Assembly (NCBI RefSeq): GCF_000316665.1
Contig: NC_019678.1
Location: 6,324,001 to 6,388,000 of the forward strand
Origin: Rivularia sp. PCC 7116
Lineage (GTDB): Bacteria > Cyanobacteriota > Cyanobacteriia > Cyanobacteriales > Nostocaceae
DNA length: 64,000 bases
Reading direction: 5' to 3'
Shown here: positions 1-14,737 of the stretch, piece after piece
Layout: every line of letters starts with the position of its first letter
Position numbering within the stretch: the first letter of the stretch is position 1
Program-made: the position numbers and the translations under genes
Notes under the pieces: generated by a model
What the model saw: the letters and a program-made list of their open reading frames with translations, nothing else
Database searches by the model: none
What the model was told of the DNA's origin: nothing

Positions 1-338
1 TGAGAAGCCGCGCAAGATAAACCTTTAGAGGTTGCAGAAAATTCAGAATCATGCATACACCTAATGTTTTATAAAAACGTAGTTGTATTATACTGTTTGC
101 TTGACAGTTAATTCGTTAATTTATGCAAAATAATTATTTTTTGCGGTTTCTAGGAATTGACAATTAAAGTGTGAAATATCTACTTTTTGACACTTAATTT
201 GTGAAATGATGGTTAGAAAAGTGTGATTGTTGTAAATAGTAAAAACCCTGTCATAATCCTTGCAATGACAGGGTTTGATGGATTTAAAGTTTCGTGACGA
301 ATAATTTGTTAAGTTGACAGATAATTAGTTAATGTACA
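1..338. mobile_element. End of a Tn7-like (TnsB-type, V-K CAST-like) transposon
   Basis: Several 20-bp-class repeats of the form TTGACAnnTAATTnnTnAA lie at 101-120, 157-177, 187-207, 294-312 and 314-332. The last runs into TGTACA at 333-338. Read outward, the terminus begins TGTACATTAAC followed by further binding-site-like copies. Tandem TnsB sites ending in TGTACA are typical of type V-K CRISPR-associated transposons and relatives. The interior of the element must lie to the left of the window, so its genes are not visible and the subtype is inferred. No other terminus is present, so the 5-bp target duplication cannot be tested; the flanking bases here are AATTC at 339-343. Confidence 0.6.
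241..277. terminator. Hairpin inside the transposon end
   Basis: AAACCCTGTCAT and ATGACAGGGTTT form a 12-bp perfect stem with a loop of about 10 nt. It lies between the inner and terminal TnsB-like repeats. It may terminate transcription leaving the element or entering it from the TPR gene. No long T-run follows on either strand, so its role as a terminator is inferred. Confidence 0.5.
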
Positions 339-1951
339 AATTCCTCTGCTTCGGAAAAACGTTCTAAACTACCATAGACTGTAGCAAGATTATTTAAAGT
401 TGTGGCTACCTGGGGATGGTTATTACCAAATTGACTTCTAATAATTAACAAGACTTCCGTAAATAGCTTTTCTGCTTCTGCATATTTAAATTGAGCATCA
501 TAAAGTACTGCCAAACTATTCAAAATTCCCGCAACATCGGGATGCATTTCTCCCAGTAAGCGTTTTGCTAACTGATAATTTTCTTTGTATATTGCTTCTG
601 CTTGAGAATATCTTCCTTGTAAGCGGTAAATTTCTGCGATTCTATTTAAACTTTTGACAATATCGTGATGCTCTTCTCCGAATATATTTTTTCTAATGGC
701 TAAAACTGTTAAATATTTTTGTTCGGCTTGAGAATAATTTCCTTGTTTTTGATAAACTAGCGCTAAATGGTTTAAGTTATCGGCGTAATTGGGATGATTT
801 TTACCGTATGCTTTTTCAATTGAATCAAGTGTTTTTAAACAAATAGATTCTGCTGTTTGATAACGTCCTTGATAAGTATAGAGTACCGCAAAATTATGTA
901 ATAGTTGGACAATATCGGGATGTTCTGGATTTAAAAATAATTTTCTAATGTCGTAAGCTTGTTGATAAACTTCTTCGGCTTTTAAATAAAGTCCTCGAAG
1001 TAGATAAACATTACCTAAATTATTTAGACTTTGAGCAACTTCTAAATGCTCTTTTCCAAATATTGCTTTTCGGATTTCTAAAGCTTGTAAATGAATTCTT
1101 TCCGCATCTGCATAACGACCTAGATTTTCAGAAATACCGCCAAGATTATTTAAAATAATAGCAATAGAGGGATGTTTGTCATTCCCCAAACATTTTTTAC
1201 ATAATTCACAAGCTTGGGTATAATAATCTTCAGCTTCCGCAAAACGTCCTTGAGAATTATATAAAGCGGCTAAATTATTTAAACTCGCTGCCACATTCCA
1301 ATGTTCTTCACCAAGCAATTTTTTACGCATTGCTAATGCTTCTAAATGCATTGTTTCCGCATCTTGATAGCGTGCTTGGTTTTCATAGATTGCAGCTAAA
1401 TTATCCAGACTCTGAGCAACATCGGAATGTTTTTCTCCAAATAGAGATTGTCGCATATTTAAAGATTTGATATGCATTTTCTCTGATTCTGCATAACGTC
1501 CTTGCTCTCGATATACTTCGGCAATATTATTTAAAATAGTCGCAATTTCTTCATGTTCTTCACCAAGGTGAATTTTCCACAGATGCAAAGCTTGAAAAAA
1601 ATAGTTTTCAGCTTCAGGATAATTACCTTGAATTACATAAAATGCAGCTAGATTATTTAAACTTTGAGCAACATCGGGATGATTTTCTCCCAACAATTGC
1701 TTTCTCATTTCTGTGCTTTCAATCAGCAATGGTTGGGCATCTGGATAGTTACCTTGAATTCGGTATAATTCTGCGAGGTTATTGAGGCTGTCTGCTAAAA
1801 CTTTATGCTCGCCGATTTTTTCTTTAGTTAGTTTAATTGCTTTTTTGGTGATAGATATTGCTTGTTTTATATCACCTTCTCCGGCTAATCTTACAACTTC
1901 TCGGTTGAGTTGGTTTATTTCTTCGAGGTTTTGAGAGGTGTTGTTGTTCAT
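329..1951 (-). CDS. Kinesin-light-chain-type TPR protein, 3' end cut by transposon
   Basis: The 540-residue protein is almost entirely tandem 42-residue tetratricopeptide repeats (TPR_10/TPR_12 type), with recurring LNNLA.LY..QGRY..AE and LG..HP motifs; about twelve units are visible. Such proteins are protein-interaction scaffolds, and in filamentous cyanobacteria they often belong to signalling or conflict modules. The last repeat stops halfway at AEEF. The final residues V-H and the TAA stop are read from the transposon terminus (TGTACATTAA on the minus strand). The native C-terminus is therefore missing and any downstream domain has been lost to the other side of the element. No N-terminal effector domain is visible. 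Whether the truncated protein is functional is unknown. Confidence 0.85.
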   Translation of the reverse strand: MNNNTSQNLEEINQLNREVVRLAGEGDIKQAISITKKAIKLTKEKIGEHKVLADSLNNLAELYRIQGNYPDAQPLLIESTEMRKQLLGENHPDVAQSLNNLAAFYVIQGNYPEAENYFFQALHLWKIHLGEEHEEIATILNNIAEVYREQGRYAESEKMHIKSLNMRQSLFGEKHSDVAQSLDNLAAIYENQARYQDAETMHLEALAMRKKLLGEEHWNVAASLNNLAALYNSQGRFAEAEDYYTQACELCKKCLGNDKHPSIAIILNNLGGISENLGRYADAERIHLQALEIRKAIFGKEHLEVAQSLNNLGNVYLLRGLYLKAEEVYQQAYDIRKLFLNPEHPDIVQLLHNFAVLYTYQGRYQTAESICLKTLDSIEKAYGKNHPNYADNLNHLALVYQKQGNYSQAEQKYLTVLAIRKNIFGEEHHDIVKSLNRIAEIYRLQGRYSQAEAIYKENYQLAKRLLGEMHPDVAGILNSLAVLYDAQFKYAEAEKLFTEVLLIIRSQFGNNHPQVATTLNNLATVYGSLERFSEAEEFVH

Positions 1952-2107: not shown

Positions 2108-2472
2108 TCATTCGTCCCCGTGAAGGGGAATTAATTTAAAACACACAGAAAGCAGAAAACATCTTTTCTTAAAGTGGAAGTTTCCGTCCCCGTGAAGGGG
2201 AATTAATTTAAAACCAGTATTGAATCTGCAAGCTAACACAAATACTAATTTAGTTTCCGTCCCCGTGAAGGGGAATTAATTTAAAACAGCTAGTTCTCAA
2301 GTTTTAGAAGATTTGGAAGAGTTGTTTCCGTCCCCGTGAAGGGGAATTAATTTAAAACGTATGGTCGAAGGAATAGATACAGTAGATCCTCGTGAGTTTC
2401 CGTCCCCGTGAAGGGGAATTAATTTAAAACTTAGAAGTTCCCAAGCATCATCAGTTGGAACTGCTAGAGTTT
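2108..2472 (-). CRISPR. CRISPR array, leader-distal half (repeat type A)
   Basis: Five 35-bp repeats start at 2108, 2180, 2253, 2324 and 2396, separated by spacers of 36-38 bp. A fifth spacer at 2431-2468 is followed by GTTT at 2469-2472, the first bases of a sixth repeat that the intron interrupts. In plus orientation the repeat begins GTTTCCGTCCCCGTGAAGGGG and ends TTTAAAAC. On the minus strand a CCCC-TTCAC-GGGG hairpin is followed by exactly 8 nt, ACGGAAAC, as expected for a Cas6-generated 5' handle, so transcription is inferred to be leftward. The repeat at 2108 is degenerate at its handle end, which fits the leader-distal end. No cas gene lies in the window. Confidence 0.93.
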
Positions 2473-2512
2473 AATGGGTGGGTCAGGGATATCGCTACCC
2501 CCTTCCCCCCGA

Positions 2513-2547
2513 CAAACCGGACAAGCAAGTTACCAAGCATCCGGCTT
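2513..2547 (-). ncRNA. Group II intron domain V
   Basis: On the minus strand a hairpin starting AGCCGGATGCTTGG and closing CTTGTCCGGTTT, with a GTAA tetraloop, matches the size and AGC-bearing stem of group II domain V, the catalytic core. It directly follows the maturase stop codon. A second G-rich/C-rich stem between it and 2473 would be domain VI. Confidence 0.75.
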
Positions 2548-4340
2548 TAGCCAATCCTAACGCTTCCAGGGACTGGGTTTAATTCTTGTAAGTCCTGCAC
2601 AAATACCTCGTCTTCACACCCAGGGGCTACTGAATGTACTTGTCGGTGACAGTAGTAATGCATCAATTCTAGATTAGCGTAAGTATCTTTACCACCCCTA
2701 CTTTGAGGAACTTTGTGATGTTTTTGAATTGGTTCATCATTAAACAATGATTCCCCACAAACGCAACACTTATATCCTTGTTTTCGGGCTAGCTTTTGGT
2801 AAGAAGGAATTAGATTTTGAGATTTTCTCTTAGTTCTTGACTCCCAATATTTAACCAAATCTGGGTTATCATAAGAAGCATCACCTTTGACTAAAGTGTG
2901 CCTTCTAATATTGAACCAACTAAACTTGAGAAGATACTGACCTGTCCGCTTATCCCCCTCCGGGTTCACCAGTTTGCTTATGCCGGGGAACCCGTCCACC
3001 GCAACTGGTTCACCGAACACCCAGTTATCATTTCTATCAAAGTTTAGTCGTCCCCAGTACTTATGTTTACGCCATCCAGAACTTTTCTTTGGATGCACTC
3101 TTTTGGCGTACCTGTTTTCTCTGACATACATCCAAGTATCTAGTTTGTGGAATATGTGGGAGGAAACGACTGTACGGTAATAATTAGCAACTCCGCGAAT
3201 AATCGGGTTAAGTTTGGATATCAAATAATTAACATTACTGCTCTTATTTTCTAACCAAACTTGCTTAATCTTATTCCGTACATCTTGCAACGCTTCTTTA
3301 CTGGGTTTAATCAGTACTTTCCGCCCAATTTTGGTATTTTTATCCTTGTACCATCTGATGTTAAAGCTCAAGAAGTTGAATCCTTCACTCAGATGTACTA
3401 TGTTAGTTTTAGCTTTGGATAAAGCCAAACCTTTAGATTTCATCCAGTGGGATAGCGTCTCAACCACGCAAGCGGCATCTTCTTGAGTTTTGCAGAAAAC
3501 CACAAGGTCATCTGCGTAGCGCACGATACCACGATTTCCAATAGTATGACCGTGTTTATCGTATCTAATGCCGAGCGCAGACTCCATACCGTGTAAAGCA
3601 ATATTCGCAAGCAAAGGCGAGATTATTCCGCCTTGAGGTACACCAGTTTCTGTATCGTTAAAAACGCCCTTGTCTACATATCCAGCCTTTAACCACTGTT
3701 GAATTAACTTCTTTGCGGGGAAGTTACCAATGGTTTTAAGTAAAGGGGAGTGAGCGATATTATCAAAACAACCCTCAATATCTGCATCCACAACCCAGCT
3801 TTTAGTTGAGTTGGCTTTAGACATTGAATGTATTCTTTCTATCGCATCATGTACGCCTCTACCGGGGCGGAAACCGTAAGATGTTCTCTCGAATTGTGCT
3901 TCCCAATAAGGTTCTAAAGCATTTTTCACAATGGCTTGTAAACACCTATCGATGACACAAGGGATTCCGAGGGGACGTTGTTTACCGTTGGATTTACGGA
4001 TATAAACCCGTTTTACTGGTAGTGGTTTCCAGGGAGGACACCTTGTTAAAATATCAACCAAAGTTCCTCTAGCTCCTGGGGTCAAAACCAGTAATTTATC
4101 CACACCCGCAGTTTTCTTACCAGAATTTAATTGCGTGACTCGTCTAACGGAAAGTACTATGTTAGAATAGCTACGCATGAGTAGCTTTTGAAGACTACGA
4201 ATCTTTTTTAAGTCACCGTCTCTGGTTGCCTTGAAAATTCTTTGTCTAAGTCTGGTGACTACCCGGTTAGCATGTTTCCATTTAATGCTATTCCAGTCGG
4301 TAGCCCTCTCGGTTACGTTCACAATTGTAGATTGCACCAT
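2547..4340 (-). CDS. ltrA: Group II intron reverse transcriptase/maturase with HNH endonuclease
   Basis: This 597-residue intron-encoded protein supports splicing and retrohoming of the surrounding intron. Order of domains: an RVT_N region (about 1-90), a reverse transcriptase domain (about 95-330) with the catalytic YADD at 275-278 and the GVPQGGIISPLLANI motif just before it, a maturase/thumb region (about 350-460), and a C-terminal HNH nuclease (about 525-580) with CCVCGE, a KHHKVP histidine pair and YCHRQVH. All key residues are present and the frame is intact, so the intron may be mobile. ATG is at 4340, and about 590 bp of ribozyme sequence precedes it, as is normal. The stop codon abuts domain V. 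The name ltrA is used generically. Confidence 0.93.
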   Translation of the reverse strand: MVQSTIVNVTERATDWNSIKWKHANRVVTRLRQRIFKATRDGDLKKIRSLQKLLMRSYSNIVLSVRRVTQLNSGKKTAGVDKLLVLTPGARGTLVDILTRCPPWKPLPVKRVYIRKSNGKQRPLGIPCVIDRCLQAIVKNALEPYWEAQFERTSYGFRPGRGVHDAIERIHSMSKANSTKSWVVDADIEGCFDNIAHSPLLKTIGNFPAKKLIQQWLKAGYVDKGVFNDTETGVPQGGIISPLLANIALHGMESALGIRYDKHGHTIGNRGIVRYADDLVVFCKTQEDAACVVETLSHWMKSKGLALSKAKTNIVHLSEGFNFLSFNIRWYKDKNTKIGRKVLIKPSKEALQDVRNKIKQVWLENKSSNVNYLISKLNPIIRGVANYYRTVVSSHIFHKLDTWMYVRENRYAKRVHPKKSSGWRKHKYWGRLNFDRNDNWVFGEPVAVDGFPGISKLVNPEGDKRTGQYLLKFSWFNIRRHTLVKGDASYDNPDLVKYWESRTKRKSQNLIPSYQKLARKQGYKCCVCGESLFNDEPIQKHHKVPQSRGGKDTYANLELMHYYCHRQVHSVAPGCEDEVFVQDLQELNPVPGSVRIG

Positions 4341-4930
4341 AACTTTTCCCGAAAAGTTAACTTTTCTTGTTGCATAGAATTCAAGGGATTCACTCGCTAC
4401 ACGTCAGCACTCTTTCGGGTTAGTCATTAGACCTATCTGCCCAGTTATGATTTCCTGTTTACCGTTGGGCTTGGCAGCATTCGCTTCTTGTAGCGTCTTA
4501 CACCCACTGTGGAATTAAAAATCGGATTACTCCAATCCCTACTTACAGCGTCGATTCTAGTTGTAAGACCTCAATGGGGTTACTTCATATCACACACAAG
4601 AGATACAACCATTACGGGTTCCTTCTATACACCGGAAGTTGTTTGATGCCTTATATTCCGAGGACAGGGCGAAATATCTAACTCCATTTATCGTGTCAGC
4701 CGTTTCGATAATTCCTCATCACGGTGCCTCGTCAAAGATTCACTTTCGTTAACCCAAAAATGATTTTACCCTAGCGCCTCATCCACTTTTCGGCTAGTAG
4801 ATTTTACGCATTTCCCTCTAGCTCTGAGACATCATAGTTACCCGTGATGCCCCTTCGGGCAGGTACTGGTCAGACATTAACCAGGAGTAGTTACAAGCTA
4901 CTCACTCTCGTGAGCGACTGATAGTCGCAC

Positions 4931-5393
4931 CCATCCCCGTAAGGGGTTAAGGAATTAAAACTTCGTAGAGCTCAATACCAGATCGTGAACCAAGGAGGTT
5001 TCCATCCCCGTAAGGGGTTAAGGAATTAAAACAAGTTAGAGATTACTTACTTTTTGATCGTATTGGCGTTTCCATCCCCGTAAGGGGTTAAGGAATTAAA
5101 ACTGAAAACCGCATTGTCGCCAATTGCCGCATTGAAAGTTTCCATCCCCGTAAGGGGTTAAGGAATTAAAACAATTGCAGCATGCAAATAGTGTAGAAGA
5201 TGTGGGAAAAGTTTCCATCCCCGTAAGGGGTTAAGGAATTAAAACCATATTTCTACAAAATCCACATCTGTGGTAGGTGATAGTTTCCATCCCCGTAAGG
5301 GGTTAAGGAATTAAAACAATAAGCGGAAAATTTTTGGTCCTGCTGAAACTCTTAAAGTGTTTCCATCCCCGTAAGGGGTTAAGGAATTAAAAC
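4931..5393 (-). CRISPR. CRISPR array, leader-proximal half (repeat type B)
   Basis: A 31-bp partial repeat at 4931-4961, missing only the GTTT left of the intron, is followed by six full 35-bp repeats starting at 4998, 5068, 5138, 5211, 5283 and 5359. The six spacers are 35-41 bp. In plus orientation the repeat begins GTTTCCATCCCCGTAAGGGG and ends GAATTAAAAC. On the minus strand a CCCC-TTAC-GGGG stem is followed by the 8-nt handle ATGGAAAC, giving leftward transcription. Repeats are identical among themselves but differ from those left of the intron in the 5' half and loop. With the other half, the array would have 11 spacers. The effector type cannot be assigned without cas genes. Confidence 0.95.
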
Positions 5394-6363: not shown

Positions 6364-6609
6364 ATGATTCAGGCAATTAATTCAGAACAAGTATTCGTCA
6401 CAAACCTCGAACAATTCATGACGAAAGCTGACAAATTCATCAAAATCTACTATTCAGGTGTCAGCGATGAAAATCATCTTCGAGAAATACTGCAATAACT
6501 GAAAAATCTAGGATTAGATACAGACTTGCGACAGTTAGAAATCGATTATCAGCACAACTGCGAAATCAAGGATTTGATGGCAGATTATCACGATTCATCT
6601 TGGTACTGA
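6364..6609 (+). pseudogene. Small gene with an in-frame stop codon
   Basis: ATG at 6364 is preceded by an AGGAGA ribosome-binding site (6352-6357). The frame runs 44 codons to TAA at 6496-6498, directly after ATACTGCAA, then stays open in the same frame for 36 more codons to TGA at 6607-6609. The second half (KNLGLDTDLRQLEIDYQ and onward) has ordinary protein composition. This is most simply an 81-residue gene interrupted by a point mutation. Translation of the 44-residue N-terminal part is possible. No known domain was recognised. Confidence 0.6.
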
Positions 6610-6749
6610 TTACCGAAACTTATGTGACTTAAAGGAAAAGTTTGCCGCAATGGCAAGCTTATACTTTAATTTGGCTGCGGTTTCCATAAAGATAAAGGCA
6701 TCACTGTCTTCATCATCTTTAAAGCAGTTCGCCAAGAGAACGCCGTACC

Positions 6750-13275: not shown

Positions 13276-14737
13276 ATGAATAAAATATATGCAACTCTAG
13301 ATTTAAACAAATCTCTGAAAGAATTTAAAGAGAATGTTACGAAAATTTTAGAATTGACTGATGTGGACAATTGGGATGGAGTAAAAATCAAAAATAAAGA
13401 ATCTTGTAATAAGAAATATTGCTTTAATTTTAGCAGGACAATGCGTAGCTATTCTATTATATAATCTTTCTCATAATACAATTGCTATCAATACAGCAAA
13501 TAAAAAGACACAAGCATGGTGGCGTGCGAAGACGAAAAATCATGGATATAAAAATCGCCAAATACTAACAATAGGGAATGTAGAATTGAATCTAAAATTG
13601 CCTTATGTTGTGGAACGTAATAAGAATAAGAAAGGAAGTAAAACTTTAAACCAGGGATTTTGCCCCTTTCTAAGATGGTTGGGTATGGAAGAAGGAATTA
13701 CCCCCTTTGTTTGGTCAAATATTGCAAAGTATGGTGCAATAAGTTCATCATTTGATTCTGCTCGTCAAACATTAATAGATTGGGGAATTAATATAAGCCT
13801 AAAACGTATAGAAAGATTAACGTATTGTTTTGGTAAAATAGGATTAAGTATACGTGAATCAAAAATTTTTAATCTTAATATTGGTAATTTGGTACCAGGC
13901 AACACATTAAAAGGTCAACGGGTAGTTATAGCTGCTGATGGTGGAAGAACTAGAATTCGTATCGATAAAAAAGGTCGGAGAAATTCTAAAACGAATAGAC
14001 ATGGCTTTACTGGAGAATGGATTGAGCCAAAACTTTTGACTATTTACACCGTGGATGAAAAAGGTAAAAAAATTAAAAATGGTGAAATCCCTATTATAAA
14101 TGACGGAACTTATGAAGATTACCAGGGATTTCTTAAAATACTAGAAATGTACCTTGTTAGCTTAGGAATAAATCAAGCACGGCAAGTATTATTAATTGCG
14201 GATGGAGCAGAGTGGATATGGAAACACATTCCTCCACTTCTTAAAAAATTAAATTGCCCACTAGAAACTTATCAACTACTAGATTTTTATCACGCTACGG
14301 AACATTTACAAGTTTTTGCAGATAATGCTTTTTCTAAAGAAGCAGAGCGAAAAAAATGGTTTAAGCAAACTCGTTCTGCATTGAAAAAAGGTAAGATAAA
14401 TTCCATTATTCAAGAAATGAATAAACTCAGCTTAGAGTTTACTGGTGAGCGTCGTAAAAATTTGGATAGAGAAATAAATTATTTTTTCAAAGGCAATAAA
14501 GAAGGACGTTTTAACTATCATAAAATTTCATCTCTTAAACTACCTATTGGTAGTGGTGCTGTAGAAAGTTTAATTCGACAAGCTGTTAATTTGCGTATGA
14601 AAGGAAACAGCAAATTTTGGTTAAAAGAGAATGCTGAAACTATATTACACGCTCGTTGTCAATGGATTGCTGGTTCCTGGAACAATTTCTGCGATTCTAT
14701 TTTAACTGCACTCGTTAAGCCGATACAGCTTGCATAA
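13276..14737 (+). pseudogene. ISKra4-like (ISMich2-type) transposase with a frameshift
   Basis: Two frames together encode one transposase. The first starts MNKIYATLDLNKSL at 13276. The second, open from 13385, continues with RNIALILAGQCVAILL, then WWRAKTKNHGYKNRQI, and runs through RVVIAADGGRTRIR, LLIADGAEWIWKHI, LLDFYHATEHL and PIGSGAVESLIRQ to 14737. The DDE-like acidic residues and GSGAVES motif fit the ISKra4 family. The frames are offset by +1 (or -2), with the switch possible within A-rich DNA at about 13385-13400. This could be programmed frameshifting, known for some relatives, or an inactivating indel. The later ATG at 13586 is internal. Convincing inverted repeats were not found. 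Confidence 0.7.

What the first reader, a model, noticed from the sequence alone, without database searches (positions are those of the whole stretch)
2469..4961. Group II intron inserted precisely inside a CRISPR repeat
On the plus strand GTTT (2469-2472) and CCATCCCCG onward (4931-4961) flank the intron and together rebuild exactly one 35-bp repeat. A normal-length spacer (38 bp) lies on the left and one of 36 bp on the right. On the minus strand the break falls within the predicted 8-nt crRNA handle (ATGG | AAAC). The intron reads in the same direction as the predicted array transcript, so splicing could restore the repeat and keep the array working. Repeats as homing sites would give an intron many identical targets that do not harm genes. 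I do not know of such a case being described.
Basis: partly seen in the sequence, partly recalled or inferred. Interest (0 to 1): 0.93.

Follow-up and report, generated by a model that had tools for sequence, protein, structure and literature searches.

The report
Retroelement family that homes into CRISPR repeats
A self-splicing mobile intron in this cyanobacterium sits exactly inside a repeat of a CRISPR immune array, and it belongs to a family of such introns whose RNA is complementary to CRISPR repeats and which are found inside them in about twenty other genomes.

Summary
A complete group II intron (2473-4930, minus) splits one CRISPR repeat, ...GGGGATGG^AAAC; the joined exons equal the intact repeat, 35/35. 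An identical copy sits at the same position of an unlike repeat in another array, 1.17 Mb away. Intron-only searches listed 25 sites with a readable 5' junction (24 in 19 genomes of the family, one in another family). All 25 have a repeat-type 5' exon at that position, and 24 have further copies of the repeat at array spacing, against 0 of 21 sister introns. Comparing introns with their own exons located EBS1 (0 of 500 permutations). In this lineage it pairs 7-8 of 8 bases with the repeat and partly follows repeat changes. The encoded RT/maturase/HNH protein is under purifying selection, and CRISPR-inserted copies form one clade (100/100). So this is a lineage of group IIB-like introns whose homing site is the CRISPR repeat. 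It lies in crRNA sense, so splicing could restore the repeat; splicing and mobility are inferred, not shown. Ten open-access full-text searches listed no report of this.

The parts
2473..4930 (-). Complete group II intron, 2458 nt, sense to the crRNA transcript
   Evidence: 5' GUGCG, D5-D6 ending at 2473, IEP, precise exon junctions, identical second copy
2547..4340 (-). Intron-encoded protein, 597 aa: reverse transcriptase, maturase (X) domain, HNH endonuclease
   Evidence: closest solved structure 6me0; dN/dS 0.09-0.15 in seven pairs of lineage members
2473..2549 (-). Domains V-VI; candidate branch-point A at 2479, 7 nt from the 3' end (inferred)
   Evidence: Rfam RF00029, 45.3 bits, cutoff 40; 17-sequence alignment, all rows ending ACCCATT
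4775..4885 (-). Weak match to group-II-D1D4-7, below Rfam cutoff
   Evidence: 28.3 bits, cutoff 34
4660..4667 (-). EBS1, 5'-CUGUCCUC-3' (intron nt 264-271)
   Evidence: Comparative exon-intron pairing; 0 of 500 permutations reach the observed maximum; 8/8 pairing with the repeat
4931..4938 (-). IBS1 = repeat nt GGGGAUGG (-8 to -1), half in the repeat hairpin stem and half in the predicted crRNA handle
4931..4961 (-). 5' exon: first 31 nt of the interrupted repeat in crRNA sense
2469..2472 (-). 3' exon: last 4 nt (AAAC) of the interrupted repeat
4998..5393 (-). Array B: six intact 35-nt repeats upstream in crRNA sense (4998, 5068, 5138, 5211, 5283, 5359)
2113..2430 (-). Array A: four intact repeats of a different type (2180, 2253, 2324, 2396) and a truncated one at about 2113
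2431..2468 (-). 38-nt spacer directly downstream of the intron in crRNA sense
4962..4997 (-). 36-nt spacer directly upstream of the interrupted repeat in crRNA sense
2953..3014 (-). About 60-nt dispersed element inserted in frame in the IEP (19 aa), absent from the other six IEPs aligned

Best explanation
It is a mobile group II intron (group IIB-like, RT-maturase-HNH protein) of a lineage whose homing site is the CRISPR repeat. SHOWN: the lineage sits at one position of the repeat (mostly GGGGAYKG^AAAC) in many different arrays and genomes; its EBS1 is complementary to that part of the repeat; the insertion is precise; its protein-coding sequence is under purifying selection; the CRISPR-inserted proteins form one clade, which fits a single origin from introns with other target sites. 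INFERRED: the intron RNP recognises the repeat in DNA by EBS1-IBS1 pairing and reverse-splices in, and HNH nicking with target-primed reverse transcription completes retrohoming. Because the same pairing positions the 5' splice site, the intron lies in crRNA sense and can splice from the pre-crRNA, rejoining hairpin-AUGG to AAAC and restoring the repeat. Many identical targets outside genes, plus splicing, make CRISPR arrays a low-cost niche. Unspliced transcripts would lose the 5' handle of the next spacer, and Cas6 cutting after GGGG would compete with splicing.
For: Two identical copies in two unlike arrays of one genome. Intron-only search of 217 family genomes: 24 of 24 listed sites with a readable 5' junction have a repeat-type 5' exon; one more from an intron-only search of the order (L142). 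Formal rule: 25 of 26 lineage sites (24 of 25 without L136, which was found with a pattern containing the repeat) against 0 of 21 sister sites have a further copy of the repeat at array spacing. An exon-free array finder: 20 of 25 lineage loci, 1 of 28 sister loci. EBS1 column over 27 introns, 0 of 500 permutations; in 16 lineage introns 8/8 pairs in eight and 7/8 in eight. Changes that fit retargeting: CAAUCC in the branch that includes an AUUG repeat (L131), CUUC with a GGAG stem (L142). Clade support 100/100. dN/dS 0.09-0.15. D5-D6 kept in 17 copies.
Against: No RNA data: splicing, mobility and crRNA output are untested. Pairing is rich in G-U; seven of the 16 introns have one mismatch within the inner six pairs (in five of them CAAUCC faces AUGG); 8-mers with at least 7 of 8 pairs occur 1 to 19 times per intron, EBS1 included; the 16 are not independent. 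EBS2 was not found. The own genome has 10 GGGGACGGAAAC sites outside arrays that EBS1 could pair with and that are empty. Many copies are truncated or ORF-broken. L124 shows only the interrupted repeat; two of six sites known only by their 3' end (L108, L109) have no clear repeat after them. Sites are partly related: 24 distinct 5' exons among 26, and three pairs share flank or leader-side DNA at 85-94%. Identity of the two own copies could also come from gene conversion. The excess of upstream repeats (9 sites more upstream, 4 equal, 1 more downstream) could mean that insertion is not neutral.
Confidence: 0.88

Rival explanations
1. Stem-loop recognition: the intron is guided mainly by the repeat hairpin, as class C introns are by terminator and attC hairpins, and EBS1 pairing with only the 4 nt after the stem is secondary.
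For: 24 of 26 sites have an intact 4-bp stem directly before the last four 5' exon bases, also where the stem sequence differs (L131, L132, L142); in L107 and L128 it is imperfect. Ten GGGGACGGAAAC sites outside arrays are empty in the own genome.
Against: Repeats of this kind have the hairpin anyway, so it cannot be separated from sequence. EBS1 reaches into the stem (8 bp) and has U where the L142 stem reads A. The IEP has an HNH domain, and its best solved relative is 6me0 (E 1e-113), far ahead of the GsI-IIC protein (E 3e-36).
Confidence: 0.2
2. Passive hitch-hiking: one old insertion in one repeat was copied around by recombination between arrays or by array duplication, without active homing.
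For: The intron lies at the border of two repeat types in the window, and introns or remnants lie at such borders in L107 and L136. Some sites share flank or leader-side DNA.
Against: 24 distinct 5' exons among 26 sites, most with neighbours matching the joined exons in 33-35 of 35 bases. The two own copies are identical over 2458 nt but stop exactly at the intron ends, with unlike flanks. EBS1 varies with the target and the IEP is under purifying selection.
Confidence: 0.07
3. Domesticated role: the intron is kept because its RT, HNH protein or splicing serves the CRISPR system, for example RNA spacer capture or switching off old spacers.
For: RT-Cas1 modules are thought to derive from group II introns (PMC5513706, passages); purifying selection.
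Against: No cas gene was seen by eye among the ORFs of at least 100 aa in window 1-25000; cas1 and cas6 are elsewhere. Presence is patchy and many copies are decayed, as for a selfish element.
Confidence: 0.05

Closest known systems
Group II introns of Thermosynechococcus elongatus (Mohr et al. 2010, PMC2882425, passages)
   Same: Cyanobacterial introns that recognise DNA by EBS/IBS pairing and fall into families with different EBS and target sites; best solved IEP relative of the window protein is 6me0 (that this entry is T. elongatus TeI4h, group IIB, is recalled)
   Different: Their targets are dispersed genomic sites and other introns; the word CRISPR does not occur in that paper
Class C (IIC) introns inserted after terminators or at integron attC sites (PMC4424553, passages)
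   Same: Insertion a few bases after a hairpin that occurs in many copies and is not in a coding gene
   Different: Class C lacks the endonuclease domain and this IEP has HNH; EBS1 here covers 8 nt including the stem; the target is the CRISPR repeat
Sister cyanobacterial introns, mostly ending ACCCGAC/T (such as L050, L053-L058, L074-L092, L097)
   Same: IEP about 48-65% identical over most of its length, EBS1 at the same place
   Different: 0 of 21 sit in repeats; in many of them EBS1 matches their own unrelated exons
CRISPR-associated RTs (RT-Cas1)
   [quoted passage not shown] here the ribozyme is present and no cas gene is adjacent

Membership tests
Mobile group II intron | Catalytic domains V-VI | tested here: met
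   RF00029 45.3 bits, cutoff 40
Mobile group II intron | 5' end GUGYG | tested here: met
   GUGCG at the boundary
Mobile group II intron | IEP with RT, maturase (X) and endonuclease domains | tested here: met
   PF00078, PF13655, PF08388, PF01844; TIGR04416 348.9 bits, cutoff 300
Mobile group II intron | Domains I-IV fold | tested here: inconclusive
   group-II-D1D4-7 28.3 bits, below cutoff 34
Mobile group II intron | EBS1-IBS1 pairing | tested here: met
Mobile group II intron | EBS2-IBS2 pairing | tested here: inconclusive
   no column above permutations
Mobile group II intron | Precise insertion without target duplication | tested here: met
   joined exons equal neighbouring repeats 35/35
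Mobile group II intron | Splicing and retrohoming in vivo | not testable with these tools
   needs RNA and mobility assays
Group IIB (chloroplast-like) subclass | IEP closest to IIB proteins | tested here: met
   6me0 E 1e-113; that 6me0 is a IIB intron is recalled; the RNA subclass was not tested
Class C (IIC) intron | IEP without endonuclease domain | tested here: not met
   HNH present
Class C (IIC) intron | Insertion directly after a hairpin | tested here: met
   intact 4-bp stem in 24 of 26 sites, but repeats of this kind have it anyway
CRISPR-associated RT (RT-Cas1) | Fused or adjacent to cas1 and without ribozyme | tested here: not met
   no cas gene seen among ORFs of at least 100 aa in window 1-25000 (by eye); cas1 at 284300 and 6179556 of the chromosome; ribozyme present

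The most novel reading that the evidence does not exclude
A retroelement lineage that uses CRISPR arrays as its habitat: it homes into any repeat whose handle it can pair with, follows repeat evolution by changing EBS1, splices out of pre-crRNA so that immunity survives, and by lying in many arrays serves as shared homology that fuses arrays of different repeat types. It would be an RNA-guided element that targets the guide-RNA loci of its host's own defence.
Probability: 0.5. Interest if true: 0.93.

Novelty: new variant of a known kind. Interest (0 to 1): 0.88.

Why it matters
A 2015 review names three target specificities for bacterial group II introns: homing sites, terminators and integron attC sites (PMC4424553, passages). 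A lineage dedicated to CRISPR repeats would be a further one, or homing with a multi-copy site of a new kind. It puts a self-splicing retroelement inside pre-crRNA, so splicing and Cas6 processing must share one 8-nt handle, which can be tested directly. It also shows a way in which group II RTs come to lie in CRISPR loci, which bears on the origin of RT-Cas1 systems, and it gives a natural series of EBS1 variants for intron-based tools.

Tried and rejected
Assembly join error: judged unlikely (second copy, other genomes). Boundaries elsewhere: rejected, since Rfam's 3' end, GUGCG and the joined exons agree, and the candidate branch A is 7 nt from the end in the lineage and in the sisters seen. 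A longer 3' exon (TAAAC) was considered and rejected by reasoning: the joined repeat would gain a T. EBS1 was first looked for by eye near AUCUC...GUGUG and this failed; the column scan found it. EBS2 scan: nothing above permutations. Viral contigs: 35 stretches matched a pattern, none confirmed. Array fusion: the two window repeat types were not found in the other 7 genomes of the genus at up to 3 mismatches, so this gives no test. Hairpin-only recognition cannot be separated here. A general scan for unrelated intron lineages in CRISPR repeats was not done; the pattern fits this lineage's 5' end (4 of 388 genomes matched, and it is strict: it misses known members).

Rows left out of the 26-site count: six sites with only a 3' end (L108-L111, L113, L129; all with AAAC; four followed by a repeat, two without a clear one), L144 (flank not readable), L116-L118, L143 (a sister), and all internal fragments. 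Matches beyond the listing limit were not seen. The rule added AAAC to every 5' exon, sisters included, and several of the 21 sisters had no 3' end to search from; some sister loci are one locus under two ids (such as L077 and L050), of which only one was counted there.
Full report
WHAT IS THERE. On the minus strand a complete group II intron occupies 2473-4930. Its 5' exon is the first 31 nt of a 35-nt CRISPR repeat (ending GGGGATGG) and its 3' exon is the last 4 nt (AAAC). The joined exons match the six neighbouring repeats at 4998-5393 in 35/35 positions. Rfam places domains V-VI at 2473-2549 minus, 45.3 bits against a cutoff of 40, ending exactly at 2473. The 597-aa protein (2547-4340 minus) has RT, maturase and HNH domains. 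The repeats on the two sides differ in type: right GTTTCCATCCCCGTAAGGGGTTAAGGAATTAAAAC, left GTTTCCGTCCCCGTGAAGGGGAATTAATTTAAAAC. The intron lies at the border.

SECOND COPY. The genome (8,728,773 bases, 3 contigs) holds one further full copy at C1:5159654-5162111, identical over all 2458 nt. It too lies inside a CRISPR repeat at the same position, but the repeat is another one (...CTCCCCTCAGCGGGGATGG^AAAC) in another array. The two targets share the last nine 5' exon bases (CGGGGATGG) and AAAC; loop and 5' half differ. This points to recent mobility, though gene conversion between copies is possible.

RELATIVES. I searched 217 genomes of the same family with the intron alone, so the flanks had no part in the search (its listing is capped by score). 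All 24 listed sites with a readable 5' junction, in 19 genomes, have a repeat-type 5' exon at the same position. Two more come from other families of the order: L142, found with intron DNA alone, and L136, found with a pattern that contains the repeat end and so not blind. By one rule (another copy of the same 35-nt repeat, at least 74% identical, at array spacing) 25 of 26 lineage sites pass, 24 of 25 without L136, and 0 of 21 sister introns pass. The exception, L124, has only the interrupted repeat, next to DNA like the leader side of L122. A finder that ignores the exons sees three or more repeats in a row in 20 of 25 lineage loci (misses: L112, L124, L126, L127, L142) and in 1 of 28 sister loci, L082, about 2 kb from its intron. 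Of six sites known only by their 3' end, all have AAAC; four are followed by a repeat at spacer distance and two are not clearly so.

INDEPENDENCE. The 26 sites have 24 distinct 5' exons. Three pairs share flank or leader-side DNA at 85-94% (L130/L135, L036/L125, L122/L124), so 23 is a cautious number of array loci; weaker likeness of leader-side DNA is common. The downstream flank of the second own copy matches those of two 3'-end sites of the same genus at about 90% (L109, L129), so that locus was probably invaded before these species parted. Named hosts are Calothrix parasitica NIES-267, Mastigocoleus testarum BC008 and a Mastigocoleus MAG. The viral collection gave none.

TARGETING. I aligned the 5' 560-620 nt of 34 introns (13 lineage, 21 sister) and asked which column pairs best with each intron's own 5' exon, using 27 of them (21 sister, 6 lineage) for the statistic. 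One column stands out; 0 of 500 permutations of exons reach its value at any column (observed 3.04, mean permuted maximum 0.86). Several sisters match fully (AAGCAAG in L077, AAGAAAG in L055, TAATCCT in L092, the last 3 nt off the column), while others (for example L058, L062, L083, L085, L099) pair poorly there, perhaps by misalignment. In the window EBS1 is CUGUCCUC at 4660-4667 minus, pairing 8/8 with GGGGAUGG. In 16 lineage introns, near-copies included, pairing is 8/8 in eight and 7/8 in eight. Some changes fit retargeting: CAAUCC pairs its inner six with the AUUG repeat of L131, and L142 has CUUC facing a GGAG stem, with one mismatch elsewhere. The G at the third EBS1 base pairs with both AUGG and ACGG repeats. 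Against this, five introns carry CAAUCC facing AUGG with one mismatch, much of the pairing is G-U, and 8-mers with at least 7 of 8 pairs occur 1 to 19 times per intron, EBS1 included. EBS2 was not found. An intact 4-bp stem precedes the last four exon bases in 24 of 26 sites, so hairpin and sequence cannot be told apart.

HOST TARGETS. The own genome has 30 GGGGATGGAAAC sites, 29 of them in arrays; of 14 GGGGACGGAAAC sites 4 are in array A and 10 lie elsewhere, empty (assigned to arrays by position and 70-78 nt spacing). So for the AUGG type the sequence alone nearly suffices to direct the intron to CRISPR; for the ACGG type it does not. Two Cas1 and two Cas6 genes are present elsewhere, one Cas6 about 2.4 kb from an array with the same handle.

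EVOLUTION. IEPs of the CRISPR-inserted introns (9 of 32 rows) form one side of a branch, 100/100, one change of label; this fits a single origin. All 23 other rows were in the array scan. dN/dS is 0.09-0.15 over seven pairs, two of them with dS near 1.5 and two identical. Domains V-VI are conserved in 17 copies, all ending ACCCATT; sisters mostly end ACCCGAC or ACCCGAT. Many copies are truncated, as expected of a selfish element.

POSITION IN ARRAYS. Taking the leader to be upstream in crRNA sense (not tested), of 14 sites with both ends more repeats lie upstream in 9, equal in 4, fewer in 1. Array growth after insertion or selection against early insertions would both give this.

MECHANISM. 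Shown: site, boundaries, orientation, complementarity, one clade, constraint on the protein. Inferred: retrohoming by EBS1-guided reverse splicing and HNH-primed reverse transcription, splicing from pre-crRNA, restoration of the repeat. Introns or remnants at borders of unlike repeats occur in the window, L107 and L136, which suggests that introns take part in fusing arrays; this rests on three cases.

KNOWN WORK. I ran ten full-text searches of an open-access library, saw their listings, and read passages of six papers. None of what I saw describes introns homing to CRISPR repeats; most listed papers were not opened and subscription papers are mostly not held, so priority is not certain. PMC4424553 names three known target specificities, and PMC2882425 describes EBS shifts that open new target sets, the nearest parallel.

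Noticed in passing
L082 2138-6928 (Okeania sp. SIO2B3): A sister intron lies inside the reverse transcriptase part of what looks like an RT-Cas1 gene, right after its YADDF codons, beside cas2 and a CRISPR array: RVT_1 before the intron, Cas1 (E 3e-81) and Cas2 after it (array). A different intron lineage thus also sits in a CRISPR locus, in the adaptation gene.
   Followed up: partly
L080 2004-6143, L081: Sister introns inserted at the same YADDF codons of another group II intron's RT gene (twintrons); L080 seen, L081 by its exon only.
   Followed up: partly
window 2953-3014 (intron nt 1917-1978): A dispersed element of about 60 nt is inserted in frame in the IEP, adding 19 aa between the maturase and HNH domains. 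Similar stretches occur in many of the 217 family genomes and three times more in the own genome; six other aligned lineage IEPs lack it.
   Followed up: partly
window 2113-5393; L107; L136: The intron or its remnant lies between CRISPR repeats of different types, as if arrays had been fused at the intron.
   Followed up: partly
L058, L061, L079, L083, L090, L096 (5' exons): Several sister introns sit shortly after a TATAAT-like sequence, as if they insert just downstream of promoters.
   Followed up: no
L036 about 6578-6614 and 13891-13927: Two neighbouring arrays differ by one loop base, and each one's terminal repeat carries the other's base, which hints at exchange between arrays.
   Followed up: no
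window 329-1951: ORF with 126-nt repeat units next to the array; looks like a tetratricopeptide-repeat protein (by eye, no family search).
   Followed up: no
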